Virus record (IMG/VR): IMGVR_UViG_3300006928_000112
Coordinates: 1 to 21,734 of that record
DNA from: a virus
Strand: one strand, 5' to 3'
DNA: 21,734 bases
Positions 1 through 18,484 of this stretch are shown here, one piece after another (positions within the stretch are counted from its first letter, which is position 1; each line of letters opens with the position of its first letter). A program made the position numbers and the translations under genes. The notes below the pieces were generated by a model that was given only the letters and a program-made list of their open reading frames with translations, had not been told where the DNA came from and searched no databases.

Positions 1-1697
1 CTCTCTTTTGCGTCTTTGATATCTCTGGCCAACTTCTCAAACACACCTCTATCCCCTTCACTCATCTTATCTTTTAACTTATCCATCATGGCCTTGATGT
101 CTGTATCAGCAGTTACCTCTTCCATCTGAATACCAAATGCTCTTGCTTTGGCGTTCATACGTTTCTCAGCAATTGCTGCTTCCTGTGCCTTTTGTTGTGC
201 ATTCTCCTTTTTGAGTTCAGCAAGTGCTTCCTCATAGGATGTGCCAGGCAACAGTGACTTGCCGTATGCCTTCAGAGTGATCATGATGTCAGTAAAGACA
301 TTGGATAGCATTCTGCCCAGTCCACTAAAAGCATTTTTGATGTCTGCTACTAGTGCTGAGGGGTCAACAAAGTATTCACTAATGCGTAGGGCACCGTCCA
401 TCATCTTGTTGACAAACTTTTTGATTGTGCCAAAAACCAACTCAACGACTCCGTCAAACTCAAGAGGTTTGCCTGTCTTTGGATCTGAGAATAATCCTCC
501 AGTAAAATTGTTGAGAGCACCTAGTATTGATTTGCCGAACTTACCCATGTTGGCGAAAAACTGAGACAACTTGCCTGGTTTACCATCTGTGCCAAATGCA
601 CTATCAAAAACATCCTTGAATAGTTTACCAACCTCAGTTCCAATCTTGATGAAGCCATTGACCAGTGGGGTGATGTACTTAGAAATGGTTGCGGTTATTT
701 GACCTACGTCAACTCCACTCTCCTTCATCTTTGCGCCAAGGTCAACTCCAAACAATGACTTGATCCCATCATTAATGAAACCCCATAACTTGTCCAGCAT
801 GTCCTTTACGCCACCCTCTGTGACCTTTGTTGCTTCTCCACCACCTGTGAATATACTACTAAGGAACTTACTGATGTCATCCCAGAACACTGTCATGAGA
901 CCTGTTGCTAGTCCTAAGATCCCTAACTTGCCGATGTTCTTAACAAGGAACTTTCCTATGCCACCAAACAAACCTTTGAACAGGCCAGTGGCCATCCCCA
1001 TTGATTTGTTCATCATGTTGCCTAAGAAACCTTTTGCTTTATCTTTTGCCTTGCCCAAGTCCTCACTAAGACCACTCTCACCACCTGCTTTTCTTGCTGC
1101 TGCCTTTGCTTCCATTCGTTCACGTGCATCTTTATTGCCAAAGTAAGCAAGTAGTTTGTCTGAGTGACCCTTAGCACGATCACCAAGTGCCTGCGTCGCA
1201 GATCTGAACCCTGTTAATGTGCCACCGACAATCATCTCAGGCATGCGAGATAAACTCTCTTTCATATGTTGGCGGTTGTCCTTGAGGGTTGTGTTCAGGC
1301 TATCTATACCCATGACCAACTTTTTGTTGAGTGAATGGGCAGTCTGATGCATCATTGATTTTGCTGCGCCATCTTGTGACATAAATTTGCCGAAGTTGGA
1401 GCCAAAATTAGTAAACCCTTGACCCATCAGTTTGAGATTCGTGATAGTCTTAAGACCAGACTCATACTGTTTCTGTGTTGCCTCACTTTGAGTCTTTAGC
1501 CACTTAGAGTTTTTAGCTAAGTTGAGGTCGCTCCTCTCCATAATGGAAATACGTTTCGCATCATGTTTCTTAGTGCGGTCTCTCCACTTCTCATCGCCAC
1601 GTTGGGTACCATCCCACTTCTTGTGGCCAGTCTTAATCTGTTTGATGACCTCTTTATAAAATGCTTTAGTTTCTTGACTTTCCTCTTTTTCAGCCAT
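1..1697 (-). CDS. Probable tail tape measure protein (gp29 position), 3' end outside window
   Basis: The complementary strand is open for 565 codons from the ATG at 1697-1695 to the window edge, so the C-terminus is missing. AGGA precedes the start (GTAGGAACAT then ATG). The N-terminus (residues 1-60) is highly charged and Lys-rich. Residues about 220-285 are Gly/Phe/Leu-rich and hydrophobic (for example GLFKGLFGGIGKFLVKN). Around residues 480-520 is an Ala/Glu/Lys/Gln-rich probable coiled coil. Length (at least 565 aa), mixed helical and hydrophobic segments, and position just downstream of gp26 match the T4 order 26-51-27-28-29, where 29 is the tape measure, and the general rule that the tape measure follows the tail-assembly chaperone. 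I recognise no specific sequence motif, so the function rests on composition and context. It could instead be another large hub or tail protein. Confidence 0.6.
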   Translation of the reverse strand, partial: MAEKEESQETKAFYKEVIKQIKTGHKKWDGTQRGDEKWRDRTKKHDAKRISIMERSDLNLAKNSKWLKTQSEATQKQYESGLKTITNLKLMGQGFTNFGSNFGKFMSQDGAAKSMMHQTAHSLNKKLVMGIDSLNTTLKDNRQHMKESLSRMPEMIVGGTLTGFRSATQALGDRAKGHSDKLLAYFGNKDARERMEAKAAARKAGGESGLSEDLGKAKDKAKGFLGNMMNKSMGMATGLFKGLFGGIGKFLVKNIGKLGILGLATGLMTVFWDDISKFLSSIFTGGGEATKVTEGGVKDMLDKLWGFINDGIKSLFGVDLGAKMKESGVDVGQITATISKYITPLVNGFIKIGTEVGKLFKDVFDSAFGTDGKPGKLSQFFANMGKFGKSILGALNNFTGGLFSDPKTGKPLEFDGVVELVFGTIKKFVNKMMDGALRISEYFVDPSALVADIKNAFSGLGRMLSNVFTDIMITLKAYGKSLLPGTSYEEALAELKKENAQQKAQEAAIAEKRMNAKARAFGIQMEEVTADTDIKAMMDKLKDKMSEGDRGVFEKLARDIKDAKE

Positions 1698-1703
1698 ATG
1701 TTC

Positions 1704-1898
1704 CTACGCTAGCAAATTGTTGTCGTTATTATGGGCATTCTTTTCTTCTTCCATATTATTCAGAACTTGAATAATGTAGATTTTTCGTTCCCAGGGTACC
1801 ATTTCATTTATATCTGATAAGGCATATCCATGATATTTGTGCAGGGCAAAGTTGGTCTTAAAATGATTAGCCAACGAATCATGAGATATGCATATTAG
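1704..1898 (-). CDS. C-terminal extension of gp26, probably made by -1 frameshift (tail-assembly-chaperone-like)
   Basis: This frame is open from the slippery site at the end of gp26 to TAG at 1706-1704, just before the tape measure start at 1697. It encodes 64 residues, including a conserved-looking EMVPWERKIYIIQVLNNMEE segment followed by an acidic/Asn-rich tail (KNAHNNDNNLLA). It has no ATG before the Met inside that segment (1802-1800). A TTG at 1874 has no ribosome binding site. Read through a -1 slip on T TTT TTC, it fuses in frame to gp26 to give a 303-aa product (239 + 64). Position and logic match gpG/gpGT of lambda-type tails, where the fused form brings tube subunits to the tape measure. 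T4 gene 51 lies at this place in the T4 order, but T4 gp51 is much larger and I cannot claim homology. Coding status is inferred from the sensible sequence and the close fit to the gap. Confidence 0.65.
   Translation of the reverse strand, partial: LICISHDSLANHFKTNFALHKYHGYALSDINEMVPWERKIYIIQVLNNMEEEKNAHNNDNNLLA
1851..1882 (-). promoter_or_regulatory. Possible H-type RNA pseudoknot downstream of the slippery site
   Basis: In minus-strand mRNA, AUGAUU (1882-1877) can pair with AAUCAU (1868-1863). The loop segment GUUGG (1875-1871) can pair with CCAAC (1855-1851). The connecting loops are 1, 2 and 7 nt. The structure begins 15 nt after the heptamer, longer than the usual 5-9 nt spacer, and stem 1 is AU-rich, so its role as a frameshift stimulator is tentative. 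Confidence 0.35.
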
Positions 1899-2614
1899 AA
1901 AAAACTTTGCAACCCACTGACTTCATAGTCAAATGGTTGACCGCACGTCACACACCTTTTTAAGTGTATTGTGTGCTTTAATGCTGGCATGCCAGTGAAG
2001 AACTCCTGCAACTTCATAAACTGGTCTGTCGACATTGAATCAATGAACTGTTCTTTTTCTTCTTTATCTGCATCACCAAAGGCATGGGTCTCACCATCCT
2101 TCGTGAATACAGTTTCAATGCAGTTTTCCAACAGTGCGAATGATGCTTCAGTTTCATTCATATCAGCATCGCCTAAGTTGGCGATCATTCTCATGGTTGG
2201 GTACCGCATGATCACACCGATATTTTTATCAAGCATGATCTTTTTGTCATGATCTTTATTGAATTGGACTTTGACTTCCTGCAGATTCAACTGCACTTCA
2301 GTCCTATCACATTCTTCTGAGTCAGGGTGAGGCAGAAGCAAATCAACTTTTGATCCAACTGACTCTGCCCTTAACTTTAGGAAAAGGAACTCAAGATCAA
2401 ATGATGGGAGGTTCTCAGCATCGAAGTCTGTCTCCCCCTGTACGCACCTTTCCAATATTTGTTTTACTGCATCAGTCACTTCATTGGGTGTCCCACTTGC
2501 TGACTGCAACAGTAACTTTTCTTCTGCGACCAAAAAAGGTCTCAGTCTGATCTTTTGATCATTTGATGGTTGTCTCACCTCAAATGTTTTTACCGCTAGC
2601 ATCGGTAAAGCCAT
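1895..2614 (-). CDS. gp26: gp26-like baseplate hub / tail-assembly protein (T4 gp26 family)
   Basis: This 239-aa protein has the look of the T4 gp26 family: an N-terminal region with KIRLRPFLVAEEKLLLQSA (about residues 21-39), a middle region of alternating strands with PSFDLEFLFLKLRAESVGS, and a C-terminus of the form CxxCG...GLQSFF (about 222-239). T4 gp26 is about 208 aa, so the length is similar. The start at 2614 follows AGGAG with 8-nt spacing. In T4, gp26 is needed for hub assembly and its exact structural role is poorly defined. The Cys pair near the end could be half of a metal-binding knuckle, but no second pair is evident. The gene lies directly before the tape measure and ends in a slippery heptamer, which suggests a tail-assembly chaperone role with a short (239 aa) and a long (303 aa) product. 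Confidence 0.8.
   Translation of the reverse strand: MALPMLAVKTFEVRQPSNDQKIRLRPFLVAEEKLLLQSASGTPNEVTDAVKQILERCVQGETDFDAENLPSFDLEFLFLKLRAESVGSKVDLLLPHPDSEECDRTEVQLNLQEVKVQFNKDHDKKIMLDKNIGVIMRYPTMRMIANLGDADMNETEASFALLENCIETVFTKDGETHAFGDADKEEKEQFIDSMSTDQFMKLQEFFTGMPALKHTIHLKRCVTCGQPFDYEVSGLQSFF
1898..1904 (-). promoter_or_regulatory. Putative -1 ribosomal frameshift slippery heptamer U UUU UUC
   Basis: On the minus strand the last gp26 codons read CAA AGT TTT TTC TAA. The heptamer T TTT TTC has the X XXY YYZ form in the gp26 zero frame, directly before the stop codon. A -1 slip lets both Phe tRNAs re-pair on UUU and continues with CTA ATA TGC, the frame of the 64-codon downstream extension. The stop codon immediately after the heptamer would favour pausing on the slippery codons. 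Confidence 0.65.
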
Positions 2615-9970: not shown

Positions 9971-10579
9971 ATGGAAAAGAAACATCGACAAGTCTACAAG
10001 GAACACTACGGTGATATACCACCAAACTGTGATATTCACCATTTGATTCCTACATACAAGTGTAAACAGATTGGGATTGATCCAAACTTTCCTGAAAACC
10101 TGATTGCTGTTACACGGGAAGAACATATTGCTATTCACCTTGACAGATATTTTAGGAAAGGGAACAAGAAAGACCTCAAAGCATGGAGAATTTTAAAGGC
10201 AGCAAAGAATATTTTTGAGGGTGGTGAATATATGCGTGAGTGGTATCAGACAGAAGCAGGTGAAAAGAATAGAGCAAAAAAGGCAGTTGATTTAGGAAAG
10301 AGAAATAAGGTGATGAAGTTTTTTGGTGAAGATAACGCAATGAATAAGCCAGGAGTTCGAGAGTCACACGCAAAAGGACAGGCAAAGGTTGATTGGGTAG
10401 CAGTTGGATTAAAAAATAAGGAAACAGAGGGTTGGGCGAAATCGCAAGATGATCTAAACCAAAGATTGAAAGAAGATAATCCAAACAAAATACTGGTTGA
10501 ATGTCTCACTTGTAACAAAACAGGGGCAGCACCAGGTATGAAAAGGTGGCATAAAAATCACGAAATAAGAGTTATTTAA
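9971..10579 (+). CDS. Free-standing HNH homing endonuclease
   Basis: The 202-aa protein has an N-terminal HNH/beta-beta-alpha-metal motif at about residues 20-56: CDIHHLIPTYKC, then FPENLIAVTREEHIAIHLDR. His23/His24, the Asn of PENL and the His of EEHIAIH are the likely metal and catalytic residues. A NUMOD3-like DNA-binding motif follows (GEDNAMNKPGVRESHAKG, about 117-134). The C-terminus has a zinc-finger-like CLTCNKTGAAPGMKRWHKNH with C-x2-C-x12-H-x2-H spacing. Such genes are common intergenic passengers in T4-like phages and cut neighbouring sequence in competitors lacking them. It is inserted precisely between two structural genes, 8 nt after one and 1 nt before the next, with a poor ribosome binding site and A-rich codons. 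It is not part of the virion. Confidence 0.88.
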   Translation: MEKKHRQVYKEHYGDIPPNCDIHHLIPTYKCKQIGIDPNFPENLIAVTREEHIAIHLDRYFRKGNKKDLKAWRILKAAKNIFEGGEYMREWYQTEAGEKNRAKKAVDLGKRNKVMKFFGEDNAMNKPGVRESHAKGQAKVDWVAVGLKNKETEGWAKSQDDLNQRLKEDNPNKILVECLTCNKTGAAPGMKRWHKNHEIRVI

Positions 10580-13733: not shown

Positions 13734-13929
13734 TGAAGGTAAGGCACCAACGACTGATTGGCATAAACCAGATTGGTCAATGCATAGAAAACATGCAGAA
13801 GAGTTGCATGAATTTTATGACAGGATTCAGAAACTAAAAACCCAGGTCGAAGAGACCAAGGAAGATATTTACAATGGCAGAAAACTGGCAGAGTCTGAAC
13901 TTAGGGCAGGGGAACACCAAGGCAATTAA
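13687..13929 (+). CDS. Small coiled-coil protein overlapping both neighbours
   Basis: An 80-aa frame starts at ATG 13687 inside the end of the 1050-aa gene and ends 56 nt inside the 1536-aa gene. The region 13734-13873 is covered by no other plausible gene. The N-terminal 30 residues are Ser/Thr/Pro/Lys-rich. Residues about 30-75 form a charged amphipathic helix with heptad-like spacing (HAEELHEFYDRIQKLKTQVE), likely a coiled coil. No good ribosome binding site precedes 13687. An in-frame ATG at 13624 (AGGGG only 3 nt upstream) would give 101 aa with a larger overlap, and translation may be coupled to the upstream gene. I do not recognise the family. A small structural or chaperone partner of one of the two large proteins is a reasonable guess. 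Confidence 0.6.
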   Translation: MLSKTVKSTEPSPRTDEGKAPTTDWHKPDWSMHRKHAEELHEFYDRIQKLKTQVEETKEDIYNGRKLAESELRAGEHQGN

Positions 13930-16900
13930 ATCCTTTTTGAAGGATATTGACAATGTTGTTAAGGTAGTTAAAACACTTGCGCAGTTAGCGCATGGCAACA
14001 TTGCTTTCCTTCAGATGTTACTTAAAGGTTTGTCCAACCCTTTGTTTATTGCTATCCAAATTTTAGCACAGGCAATCGAAGATTACGTCAACTCATTGTT
14101 TGGCACAGGTCTATGGTACATGATCATTGACCCAACCAATGTTGATTTGAAACGTATTGCCAAGCAAGCAGAGGGAGCAAAGTTCAACTATCCTGGTTTG
14201 CTTCTCAATGACATCATGTCTGATAACTTTGAGGATACCTTATCATTTGAGGTTCTTCAGATGGTGCTTGGAGTTGGTCCTGCTCAAATTGATTCGCAAA
14301 AGGTTCGTGATGCTGAATCAGATACAAGACCTGAATATGTTGCAGAACAGCAGTTGAGACCTTATGAACTTGAGTCCATGGAGTTTGTCAAGCAACGTCA
14401 ATCGACGATGCAAAAGCAGATGGGTCCTGAAGAGAAGAAAATATTAAGACTCCGATTCCTGTATAACAGAATTAAAGAGAATACTTTTCTTACTTACTAT
14501 TTTATCACAGTGTATGGTGAGGCAGCAAAGAGTATTGTAAATCAGGTATCACAGTTAGCAGGTCCAAATGCACGCACCATGGCAGATGGAACTGAGGATA
14601 ATGTTATAGGTAGTACGGCAAGGATGGTGAGATTCCTAAGTGATGCTGGTATGGCATACGTAGGTAAAAAGGCATCTGTCCTTGGTTTGGTATCAATGAC
14701 ACCACAAGATGTCCTTGCTGCTATGGCAACTGCTGTTGATGACCCAGGTGACTTCAATCGACCTGGTGCTCCAAACTTTATCCTTCATACATCAAAAGAT
14801 CAAGAGGGCAGAAAAGAAACTCTGCTGAAGAATCCTGAAAAATGGTATTATGCCAAAAACCAACTGTTACAGTTTGAGGCGATTTTATCTAACGCCAAAA
14901 CCTCGACGCAGGTTGATGTCAACCTTGTTAGTAGTTTAGAATCAAAAATATCTGGACTCAAGAGTGACATTACCAACATTGAGAAGGAAACCATTACTTC
15001 CTATGGCAAACTCAACAAGCCAAAAAAGGACTTGTATGGTAGACCAAGGATGATGGGATTCGACAATACACCTGCTTCATCTGACCCTTTCCAAGACAAT
15101 GATGGGGCATTCCCAATGTCTGACTATGAGGGTTCATTGAGCCAAGAGTTGGACTCAGGTTTTACAAAATACAGTGGGATCATTTTTATGATTGGTGCTC
15201 CCAGACTTGATGGCATACCTATTGGCATATTTGAGATGCTGGGTTACATATTTGGAGGAGGTTTCAACTCAGTTTTTGCTGATGCGATATCAAGAGTTAC
15301 AAATGCCTTTAGTGCTCATACGAGACAAAAAACAGTCCAAATTAGAAATGTCTGTATGGTCAAACAGGCCAAACCTCCAAGTGAGGCAAGTCAGTCTGAT
15401 CCAACAGTTCCAAAACAGAAGGTTCAAGAGACTCATTACAGGATTAGGAAGGGCACACTGCTCATAGGTGAGCAAAGTAAAAATACCATGATTGTCCTTG
15501 AGAATCAAAAGACAGAACGTGAGGTCTTGACTGCGATTGACGACAAGGGTAATAAGTATAATCCATACGCAGTCCTAACTGCTGCTGGTCAGAACATGGA
15601 ACGAAGGGTCAATTCAGATACCCAAAGTTCATTCAACCTGCCTGGTACTGGAACATCAACGACTGACTTTACTGCTGCAGATGTCCAACCTGTTTATAGT
15701 GCTCAAAAACTTTTGATTGCACCTTATGATAACTCAGCAGGTAGAGGTCAATATGATCCAGTCAATGGGAAAGCATTCCAAGATGGTGAGTTGGTCTACG
15801 TGGCATATGAAGAGAATGATGGCACCATAGATATTGATAGGTCAGTTGCAGGTCAAAATACGATGTCAGTCGTTTGTGGCAACTTCCAAGCAGAATTTCA
15901 AACTCCAATGGAGTATAACTTCCCACCATCCAAGGCACCTGACTTCAATGGTAAGATAACACTGGCTGAGATGATGCCTGACTTTGCTTATGCATTGAGA
16001 TCCGCAGCACTTGGTTTTGCTAACATGCTGAGAGGTTTTGTAGCAGGTGGAGGTAGTGCTGTCGATGAGATCATGGAGATGTTAGAAAATCTTATCAAGT
16101 ACCTCACTGAGTTAGCTAATGCTATACTTAGATTCTTGGCATGGTTTGAGGCACTAGCGACTTTGAGTGATGCAGGGATATACGCAGTCACATTTACTGC
16201 CAATGGTAAGGATGGACTCAAAAAGAAACTTAAAGAACTTGGGACTGTACCAAGTGCGCCATCAAGAAGTTTAAAGTATACCAGTGCTGTTCTGTTGTTG
16301 GGTGCTGAGGCAGATACCGCCAAGTTCATTAACTTTCTCAATACCAACCAAGCATTTAAGAACTGGGAAGCAGCGAGAGATAAGTTTGCTTCCAAACTTG
16401 AGGAGGCATTGGCAAGGTTTCAAGAGGATGCGGCGAAAGAGTTTGCTGAGGTGATGAGAAGGTCAGGGCACTTTGAGAGCCAGTTCAAAGATGATTATGA
16501 ACGTAACACAGATAGTGATACAAGTGGACAAAAATTCCCATCTGATCTGCCTGGGACATTGGTGACAGGACCCAACTTTGAGGTTGGTGCTGACTCCAAG
16601 TTTGATAATGGTGGGGCAGGATACGCAGCAGAGTTGGCTGCGGAGAACGCAGCATTTGGTGATATGTTGAACCAGATACCAGCCACCGCCAATGCAGGGT
16701 ACTTTGGATTTAGTGGACAAGAGATGCTTGACTCAACTTATGACATCAAGTTCTTTTGGAAGATATCAATTGAGCGATTGACAGCACAAGAGGAATTTTC
16801 ACAAAACATTGTTGGTTACAGACTTTATTGGGCCACCTCATCCCTTGATGCAACTGAGAACTTGCAGTTCAGCAGAGATGTTGAGATATATACTTTTGAC

Positions 16901-18484
16901 GATAATGATTTTACAAAGGGAGTTGATATTGATACTCCACTTGAGATCGAGATACAGGTTGGCCAAGGCACTATACCAACTGGCACAACTCACCTTGTCT
17001 TGGTATCAGTTGCAGGAGTTACAGACAAGTTAGGAAATCAAACAAGATATATTGATGTTGAGTCATTGGAACTTCATGCGATACCTATCAGCACAGGACT
17101 TCCACTAGCACCTGAAGTTATTGTCAATGAAACTGCTTCATCCCTATCACTGGAAGAATTATACATAACCAGACTTGAGTTTGAGATAGAAGACTTAGAT
17201 AACACTGGTGATGATGAACAATCAACTGTCTTGGGTTATAGAATCTTTTTTGCTGATAGCAGTCTCAAGCAGATTGATACCAAACCATTTAAGTCCATTC
17301 CCAAACCTGCAAGTGGAGGCAATGTTACAGTTGTCCTTGAGGACGTGGAGTTGAAGAGTGCAACCTTTGCTGAATGGGATCAGTTGTTGATATTCTCAGA
17401 AAATCAGAATGGTTACTCACCACCCGTATATTTTCCTCTCAACAGAATCACTGCTGCACTCGACAAAGCACAACAAGCAGTATTTACTGATGTTGAAAGC
17501 ACGAGGGGTAATATTGGTGGCAACATTGCTATCACTCCTGGTACTCATACTTCAATCAATGGTATTGATACTACTTACAGAGTTTTCTTTGGAACAAGGA
17601 ATCCAACAACCAATGTCATATCTCAGATTGGCACCCAAGTTGGGACTGATATAAGTTTCAGAGGGATTGATGGGACTGGTAGGTTAAACTCAACTGTTCC
17701 TACGCAAGCAATACCTGATACTGCCACACACTTTATGGTCTTTACATCACTGCAGAAGTTTGCTGTTCCAGGACAAACAGTAATGATGCGTGAATCATTA
17801 AATATAAACATTAATGACCTCGGCGACGTCCCTGCTTTCCAACCCACATCACTGATATTTAATGATACTGACTCTACACTGGGAACAGTAACAGGAACTT
17901 TTACGATTGGACCAGCAGGTGATGAACAGTTGATTGACAACTACATCGTCTACTTTGGTGATAACTCATTCAGACGAGTTGATGCGACAGGCAAATCAGG
18001 GAATGGTCAAGCATTCCTTACCAATGCAACACAGGATGCTAATGGATGTATAATCACTGTTGAGGATGCTAACCATGGAGCAGTTGCAGGTGATTATGTT
18101 CTGTTCAATGCCGTAGGAGGCATGGCAGAGTTAAATGGTAATAAGTATTATATCTCACCAAATGGGACTGAGATAGCATTGTTTACTGATGCCAATATGA
18201 ATAACCCACTTGACTCAAGTGCGTTTACACCATACACGAGTGGAGGTTCCTTTTTCCATGACGTGAATAACATCAATGACGATGATGTTGTTGAGTTAAA
18301 CAGGGCAATAACGGCAGTCCCTGTACCAGATACTGCCGCATATTACATGGTCTTTTCTAAAAATGGATTTGGTGAAAGTCGCCAGTATGCCTATGATGTT
18401 GTGGTTGATCCACAGTATCCGAATGAACCTGGCGAGATCGTAGAAATCGATAAATCGATCGTTAAGGTATTAGAGATCAACTAA
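13874..18484 (+). CDS. Very large virion structural protein with C-terminal Ig/Fn3-like repeats and a nested FCCH-like domain
   Basis: The 1536-aa protein follows AGGAAG with about 9-nt spacing. The N-terminal 350 residues are mostly helical, with hydrophobic helices early (FLQMLLKGLSNPLFIAIQIL, about 48-67). A middle section (about 705-770) is again helical and hydrophobic (LIKYLTELANAILRFLAWFE), followed by AVLLLGAEADTAKFINFL. From about 955 to 1515 there are four Ig/Fn3-like repeats recognised by a GYRLYW / GYRIFF / TYRVFFG / NYIVYFG strand and a late TAxxxMVFS-like strand. They fall at about 955-1070, 1086-1197, 1202-1314 and 1326-1515. The last repeat is interrupted by an FCCH-like insertion at about 1384-1458. 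The architecture suggests a tail- or baseplate-attached anchor carrying a surface-exposed sugar- or protein-binding stalk. Function is inferred, not recognised. Confidence 0.75.
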   Translation: MAENWQSLNLGQGNTKAIKSFLKDIDNVVKVVKTLAQLAHGNIAFLQMLLKGLSNPLFIAIQILAQAIEDYVNSLFGTGLWYMIIDPTNVDLKRIAKQAEGAKFNYPGLLLNDIMSDNFEDTLSFEVLQMVLGVGPAQIDSQKVRDAESDTRPEYVAEQQLRPYELESMEFVKQRQSTMQKQMGPEEKKILRLRFLYNRIKENTFLTYYFITVYGEAAKSIVNQVSQLAGPNARTMADGTEDNVIGSTARMVRFLSDAGMAYVGKKASVLGLVSMTPQDVLAAMATAVDDPGDFNRPGAPNFILHTSKDQEGRKETLLKNPEKWYYAKNQLLQFEAILSNAKTSTQVDVNLVSSLESKISGLKSDITNIEKETITSYGKLNKPKKDLYGRPRMMGFDNTPASSDPFQDNDGAFPMSDYEGSLSQELDSGFTKYSGIIFMIGAPRLDGIPIGIFEMLGYIFGGGFNSVFADAISRVTNAFSAHTRQKTVQIRNVCMVKQAKPPSEASQSDPTVPKQKVQETHYRIRKGTLLIGEQSKNTMIVLENQKTEREVLTAIDDKGNKYNPYAVLTAAGQNMERRVNSDTQSSFNLPGTGTSTTDFTAADVQPVYSAQKLLIAPYDNSAGRGQYDPVNGKAFQDGELVYVAYEENDGTIDIDRSVAGQNTMSVVCGNFQAEFQTPMEYNFPPSKAPDFNGKITLAEMMPDFAYALRSAALGFANMLRGFVAGGGSAVDEIMEMLENLIKYLTELANAILRFLAWFEALATLSDAGIYAVTFTANGKDGLKKKLKELGTVPSAPSRSLKYTSAVLLLGAEADTAKFINFLNTNQAFKNWEAARDKFASKLEEALARFQEDAAKEFAEVMRRSGHFESQFKDDYERNTDSDTSGQKFPSDLPGTLVTGPNFEVGADSKFDNGGAGYAAELAAENAAFGDMLNQIPATANAGYFGFSGQEMLDSTYDIKFFWKISIERLTAQEEFSQNIVGYRLYWATSSLDATENLQFSRDVEIYTFDDNDFTKGVDIDTPLEIEIQVGQGTIPTGTTHLVLVSVAGVTDKLGNQTRYIDVESLELHAIPISTGLPLAPEVIVNETASSLSLEELYITRLEFEIEDLDNTGDDEQSTVLGYRIFFADSSLKQIDTKPFKSIPKPASGGNVTVVLEDVELKSATFAEWDQLLIFSENQNGYSPPVYFPLNRITAALDKAQQAVFTDVESTRGNIGGNIAITPGTHTSINGIDTTYRVFFGTRNPTTNVISQIGTQVGTDISFRGIDGTGRLNSTVPTQAIPDTATHFMVFTSLQKFAVPGQTVMMRESLNININDLGDVPAFQPTSLIFNDTDSTLGTVTGTFTIGPAGDEQLIDNYIVYFGDNSFRRVDATGKSGNGQAFLTNATQDANGCIITVEDANHGAVAGDYVLFNAVGGMAELNGNKYYISPNGTEIALFTDANMNNPLDSSAFTPYTSGGSFFHDVNNINDDDVVELNRAITAVPVPDTAAYYMVFSKNGFGESRQYAYDVVVDPQYPNEPGEIVEIDKSIVKVLEIN

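What the first reader, a model, noticed from the sequence alone, without database searches (positions are those of the whole stretch)
1704..2614. gp26 appears to be extended by a programmed -1 frameshift, making a lambda gpG/gpGT-like tail-assembly chaperone pair in a T4-like phage
gp26 ends CAA AGT TTT TTC TAA, so the canonical slippery heptamer T TTT TTC sits in frame immediately before the stop. The -1 frame after the slip is open for 64 codons, encodes a sensible sequence (EMVPWERKIYIIQ...), lacks a usable start of its own and ends 7 nt before the tape measure gene. This is the genomic and coding logic of tail-assembly chaperones in lambda, P2 and Mu-type phages. In T4, genes 26 and 51 are described as hub assembly genes without frameshifting, as far as I know. 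If real, it would assign gp26 of T4-like marine phages to the frameshifting chaperone class.
Basis: partly seen in the sequence, partly recalled or inferred. Interest (0 to 1): 0.82.

Follow-up and report, generated by a model that had tools for sequence, protein, structure and literature searches.

The report
Frameshifted gp26–gp51 tail chaperone, marine phage
This marine T4-like phage very probably makes a short and a long version of a tail-building helper protein from one gene by having some ribosomes slip back one base. That is real and strongly conserved, but T4-like phages were already reported to make this protein pair, with slippery signals in some of them.

Summary
Gp26 (2614..1895, minus strand) ends AGT TTT TTC TAA, with an in-frame T TTT TTC heptamer at 1904..1898. 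The -1 frame runs on for 64 codons and matches the gp51 family (phrog_634). All 80 IMG/VR relatives, fetched on N-terminal gp26 motifs and not on the heptamer, carry T TTT TTY in frame with the gp51 region in -1. So do KVP40 and several other phages. Of 284 scored codon columns in the fused gene, only the two that make up the first four bases of the heptamer show no third-base variation, although one of them changes amino acid. The -1 frame is under purifying selection (pN/pS 0.22, against 1.05 and 2.48 in the other frames). T4, RB49 and Aeromonas gp51 is a single ORF collinear with the fusion, and gp26 and gp51 are paralogues. The gp26 model has the HK97 tail-chaperone domain among its best solved matches. 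Vladimirov et al. 2022 (Virology) identified these chaperones in T4-like phages; citing papers report poly-T slippery sites in some and short-plus-fused gene pairs in others. Frameshifting itself is inferred, not shown by experiment.

The parts
1895..2614 (-). gp26, short tail-assembly-chaperone form (TAC-N), 239 aa, zero frame
   Evidence: PF12322 T4_baseplate E 2.8e-53; phrog_150 E 1e-58; AlphaFold N-terminal domain matches HK97 TAC 2ob9 at Z 7.4 and YqbN 3klu at Z 6.5
1898..1904 (-). slippery heptamer T TTT TTC (-1 frameshift site); base 1898 is read twice
   Evidence: in frame; T TTT TTN in 95 of 98 loci examined and in 80 of 80 IMG/VR loci; only zero-entropy third positions in the fused gene
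1704..1898 (-). -1 frame extension, gp51 region, 64 codons plus stop, gives the long form (TAC-NC, 303 aa)
   Evidence: phrog_634 baseplate hub assembly catalyst E 7.5e-16 for the 56-aa part; purifying selection in this frame only; collinear with the C-terminus of single-ORF gp51 of T4, RB49 and AhMtk13a
3..1697 (-). presumed tape measure protein (at least 565 aa, runs off the window end)
   Evidence: position directly after gp51; no family match of its own; matches only L001 among relatives; the gene in this position hits tape-measure families in Syn1 (E 6e-12) and SynMITS9220M01 (E 2e-6)

Best explanation
The locus makes two nested tail-assembly chaperones. Most ribosomes stop at the gp26 stop codon and give the short form. 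A minority slip back one base while TTT and TTC occupy the P and A sites of T TTT TTC, pass the stop, and add the 64-residue gp51 region, giving the long form gp26-gp51. By analogy with lambda gpG/gpGT, the gp26 part would bind the tape measure and the gp51 part would recruit tail tube subunits; both would leave before maturation. Shown by comparison: the conserved site, the selected -1 frame, and homology of the fusion to single-ORF gp51. Inferred: that slippage happens, its efficiency, and the partners bound.
For: T TTT TTN ends gp26 in frame in 95 of 98 loci and in all 80 IMG/VR loci, which were fetched on N-terminal gp26 motifs. The codon before FF is AGT, TCT, GAT, AAT, GCT or GGT, always ending in T; gene-wide, 61% of such codons end in T and 69% of Phe codons are TTT. 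Codons 237-238 are the only zero-entropy third positions of 284. pN/pS after the slip is 0.218 in -1, 1.05 in 0 and 2.48 in +1. Window against L001: extension 11 synonymous and 3 nonsynonymous changes; the zero-frame stop differs (TAA/TGA), but the -1 codons CTA ATA and CTG ATC keep L-I. Single-ORF gp51 of RB49 and AhMtk13a aligns across the junction. T4 gp51 is PF12322 plus phrog_634; T4 gp26 is PF12322 only. Fold match of the gp26 N-terminal domain to HK97 and YqbN chaperones.
Against: There is no protein or reporter data. No conserved downstream RNA structure was found (shuffle z from -3.3 to +1.1; RNAalifold empty). Most loci also have an ATG a few codons after the slip, often annotated as the gp51 start, so separate initiation could contribute there. 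Most VIA Z-scores of the chaperone matches (7.4, 6.5) are below the tool's own caution level of 8. The window lacks the SD-like GAGG element found upstream of the heptamer in many relatives.
Confidence: 0.91

Rival explanations
1. Gp51 is a separate small protein started by its own codon, or by stop-start re-initiation just after the gp26 stop; no fusion is made.
For: GenBank annotates gp51 as a separate CDS in S-H9-2, Syn1 and S-CAM7, and KVP40 has a separate hypothetical ORF there. Many loci have an ATG at -1 codon 4 or 7. VAP7 and K369 have TAATG overlaps and no heptamer.
Against: 31 of 95 loci have no ATG in the first 18 codons and 15 have no ATG, GTG or TTG. The window has only a TTG. It does not explain why the heptamer's third bases never vary, nor the fused single-ORF gp51 of T4, RB49 and Aeromonas phages.
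Confidence: 0.06
2. Transcriptional slippage on the T6/T7 run, not ribosomal slippage, makes the fused form.
For: The run is at least six T in every locus with the site.
Against: The run is kept short (six T then C in 72 of 95) and is always in the X XXY YYZ phase, which ribosome slippage needs and polymerase slippage does not. Efficient bacterial transcriptional slippage generally needs longer runs (own knowledge).
Confidence: 0.03
3. The frame break is an assembly error or a decayed single gene.
For: It lies in a homopolymer of a metagenomic contig.
Against: The same break in the same frame occurs in 80 of 80 IMG/VR contigs and in many isolate genomes, and both frames are under purifying selection.
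Confidence: 0.002

Closest known systems
[quoted passage not shown]
   Same: Judged the same gene family. PRFect (PMC10885494) says this paper found T4-like phages with a short gene plus a long fused gene instead of frameshifting, which is what T4 genes 26 and 51 look like here; the Adele paper (PMC12846349) cites it for poly-T slippery signals in TAC-N genes of T4-like phages.
   Different: A new, divergent marine member. The paper itself is not held, so which phages, genes and sites it lists could not be checked.
Lambda gpG/gpGT
   Same: Short form plus a -1 frameshifted long form, encoded just before the (here presumed) tape measure.
   Different: Different heptamer (lambda G GGA AAG, own knowledge), larger N-terminal protein, contractile T4-like tail; no sequence comparison with gpG was made.
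T4 genes 26 and 51
   Same: Gp26 is homologous to the short form and gp51 to the whole fusion.
   Different: T4 uses two divergently transcribed genes, each a complete ORF.
Vandenendeviridae/Andersonviridae TAC with GTTTTT site (PMC12846349)
   Same: Myovirus TAC with a poly-T -1 site.
   Different: Different motif and phage families; homology not tested here.

Membership tests
[quoted passage not shown]
Tail assembly chaperone (TAC) pair, G/GT type | TAC fold in the short form | tested here: met
   Among 656 chains the best matches were 3fgx (Z 8.4, uncharacterised), HK97 TAC 2ob9 (Z 7.4, 85 aligned, rmsd 4.2) and YqbN 3klu (Z 6.5), all on model residues 1-96; the next row (5ir0, uncharacterised) is Z 4.6 and clearly unrelated rows are at most 4.4. 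Moderate strength: most of these Z are under 8.
Tail assembly chaperone (TAC) pair, G/GT type | gene directly upstream of the tape measure gene | tested here: inconclusive
   A long gene starts 6 nt downstream but has no family match; in two cyanophages the gene in that position hits tape-measure families
Tail assembly chaperone (TAC) pair, G/GT type | both forms are made, short in excess, required for tail assembly and absent from the virion | not testable with these tools
   needs experiments; for T4, gp51 is required for assembly and absent from the particle (PMC3004832)
T4 gp26/gp51 family | PF12322 domain in the short form and phrog_634 region in the extension | tested here: met

The most novel reading that the evidence does not exclude
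The gp26/gp51 family has three ways of making its two parts: frameshifting (marine, Schizotequatrovirus, Rhizobium and other phages), gene duplication with a fused long copy (T4, RB49, Tulanevirus), and, in Ackermannviridae-like phages, stop-start re-initiation (TAATG) or an unusual slip that would give an unfused C-part. The third would break the rule that the long form must be a fusion.
Probability: 0.2. Interest if true: 0.5.

Novelty: new member of a known kind. Interest (0 to 1): 0.36.

Why it matters
It explains why gp51, annotated as a separate tiny protein in many marine T4-like genomes, often lacks a credible start: it is most likely the tail end of a frameshifted gp26. T4-like phages are abundant in the sea, so this would correct annotation widely, and it supports treating T4 hub chaperones gp26 and gp51 as the counterparts of lambda gpG and gpGT.

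Tried and rejected
Sequencing error or decayed gene: rejected by conservation in 80 of 80 contigs. Conserved downstream pseudoknot or hairpin: none found (RNAalifold empty; single-sequence z-scores mixed; window hairpin z -1.5). SD-like stimulator: GAG precedes the conserved Gly in 47 of 70 cases where that residue is Glu, against 30% GAG among Glu codons elsewhere in the gene, 8-10 nt upstream of the heptamer. It is suggestive but absent from the window, and relatedness of the loci was not corrected for. Tape measure identity by Pfam/PHROGs and by comparison with relatives: only L001 matched. PDB sequence search with the gp26 profile: no real hit. Foldseek alone against PDB gave no significant match; VIA re-alignment was needed. 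A model of the fused protein was not attempted, because the structure tool does not accept a re-read base. Vladimirov et al. 2022 could not be read.

Full report
WHAT IS THERE. Gp26 lies on the minus strand at 2614..1895 and ends CAA AGT TTT TTC TAA. The heptamer T TTT TTC (1904..1898) is in the zero frame as X XXY YYZ. After a -1 slip the frame is open for 64 codons to a stop ending at 1704, 6 nt before the ATG of the next gene (1697), giving a 303-aa fusion. The zero-frame protein is T4_baseplate/gp26 (PF12322 E 2.8e-53; phrog_150 E 1e-58). The -1 ORF is gp51 (phrog_634, E 7.5e-16 for its 56-aa part). Upstream are tail tube-like, gp2-like (DNA end protector) and gp4-like (head closure) genes, as expected of a T4-like phage.

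CONSERVATION. Eighty IMG/VR loci were fetched with patterns from the N-terminal half of gp26; all 80 end gp26 with an in-frame T TTT TTY and continue gp51 in -1. With the window, L001, L002 and annotated phages, 95 of 98 loci have T TTT TTN (72 TTC, 22 TTT, 1 TTG). Those with the site include cyanophages, a Methylophilales phage, KVP40, Aeromonas AsFcp_4, Rhizobium I1_9 and IG49, and Stenotrophomonas Ps15. The exceptions are VAP7 and Kuttervirus SM5 (both Ackermannviridae) and Vibrio K369 (unclassified, similar layout). The codon before FF is AGT, TCT, GAT, AAT, GCT or GGT, always ending in T. In the codon alignment of 94 fused genes (loci without the heptamer left out), columns 237 and 238 are the only ones of 284 with zero third-base entropy (mean 1.52), although column 237 is only 76% Ser. 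This points to selection on nucleotides, not on the protein.

SELECTION IN THE -1 FRAME. In the region starting two codons after the slip, pN/pS is 0.218 in -1, 1.05 in 0 and 2.48 in +1. Between the window and its 97% relative L001 the extension has 11 synonymous and 3 nonsynonymous changes. The two sequences use different zero-frame stops (TAA, TGA), and the two -1 codons there still read L-I in both, CTA ATA against CTG ATC. That stretch lies upstream of every possible start in these two sequences.

THE T4 COMPARISON. T4 gp51 matches PF12322 over residues 1-201 and phrog_634 over 147-246; T4 gp26 matches PF12322 only; RB49 and Aeromonas AhMtk13a behave the same way in Pfam, and RB49 gp51 also in PHROGs. 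A profile of the fused marine proteins finds T4 gp26 (E 8.8e-24), AhMtk13a gp51 (3.4e-18), RB49 gp51 (3e-17) and T4 gp51 (1.4e-10), with the best decoy at 0.13, and the AhMtk13a gp51 alignment runs straight through the frameshift junction. So T4-type phages carry a short gene and a long fused gene as paralogues, while this phage most likely gets both from one gene.

STRUCTURE. An AlphaFold model of gp26 (mean pLDDT 91.9) was compared with PDB. Foldseek alone gave nothing significant, but re-alignment put 3fgx (Z 8.4, uncharacterised), HK97 tail assembly chaperone 2ob9 (Z 7.4) and YqbN 3klu (Z 6.5) on top, all on residues 1-96; the next row is an uncharacterised protein from a Vibrio PICI-like element (Z 4.6), and clearly unrelated chains follow at 4.4 or less. 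This is moderate support for a tail-chaperone fold.

ALTERNATIVES. Separate starts exist in many loci, but 31 of 95 have no ATG in the first 18 codons of the extension and 15 have no ATG, GTG or TTG. Downstream structure is not conserved. An SD-like GAGG 8-10 nt upstream is enriched in relatives but absent in the window.

NOVELTY. Vladimirov, Gautam and Davidson (Virology 2022, 566:9-15) already identified the tail assembly chaperones of T4-like phages. The paper is not held. PRFect states from it that some T4-like phages carry one short gene and one long fused gene instead of frameshifting; the Adele paper cites it for poly-T -1 signals in TAC-N genes of T4-like phages. The window is therefore a new, divergent member of a known kind. 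What this report adds is a quantitative test on 95 loci. Frameshifting itself, the ratio of products and the binding partners remain inferred.

Noticed in passing
L016:2489-3417 (VAP7), L017:2435-3400 (K369), L018:2438-3430 (Kuttervirus SM5): Two Ackermannviridae and one unclassified Vibrio phage of similar layout keep a gp51-like C-part in the -1 frame but lack T TTT TTN; VAP7 and K369 show a TAATG stop-start overlap, VAP7 also has GTTTTTC, and SM5 has neither an obvious slippery site nor an ATG near the junction.
   Followed up: partly
1905-1925 equivalent in relatives (e.g. L004:3691-3707): An SD-like GAGG 8-10 nt upstream of the heptamer is enriched beyond Glu codon usage (47 of 70 GAG against 30%), as in dnaX-type frameshift sites (dnaX from own knowledge); the window lacks it.
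   Followed up: partly
9971-10579 (+): Free-standing HNH endonuclease gene (PF13392, E 1.5e-6) among the baseplate genes, probably a homing endonuclease.
   Followed up: no
L022, L023, L024, L026 and others, about 340 nt after the extension: In these loci, as in Methylophilales phage Melnitz-1, about 340 nt (room for a gene of about 110 aa, annotated in Melnitz-1) separates the gp51 region from the next long gene.
   Followed up: no
L048, L057, L067: The heptamer sits 24 nt before the gp26 stop instead of 0-3 nt, so the short form gains about eight extra residues.
   Followed up: no
13874-18484 (+): A 1536-aa gene in the baseplate region with a match to the E1_FCCH domain (PF16190, E 6.8e-8) near its C-terminus.
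   Followed up: no
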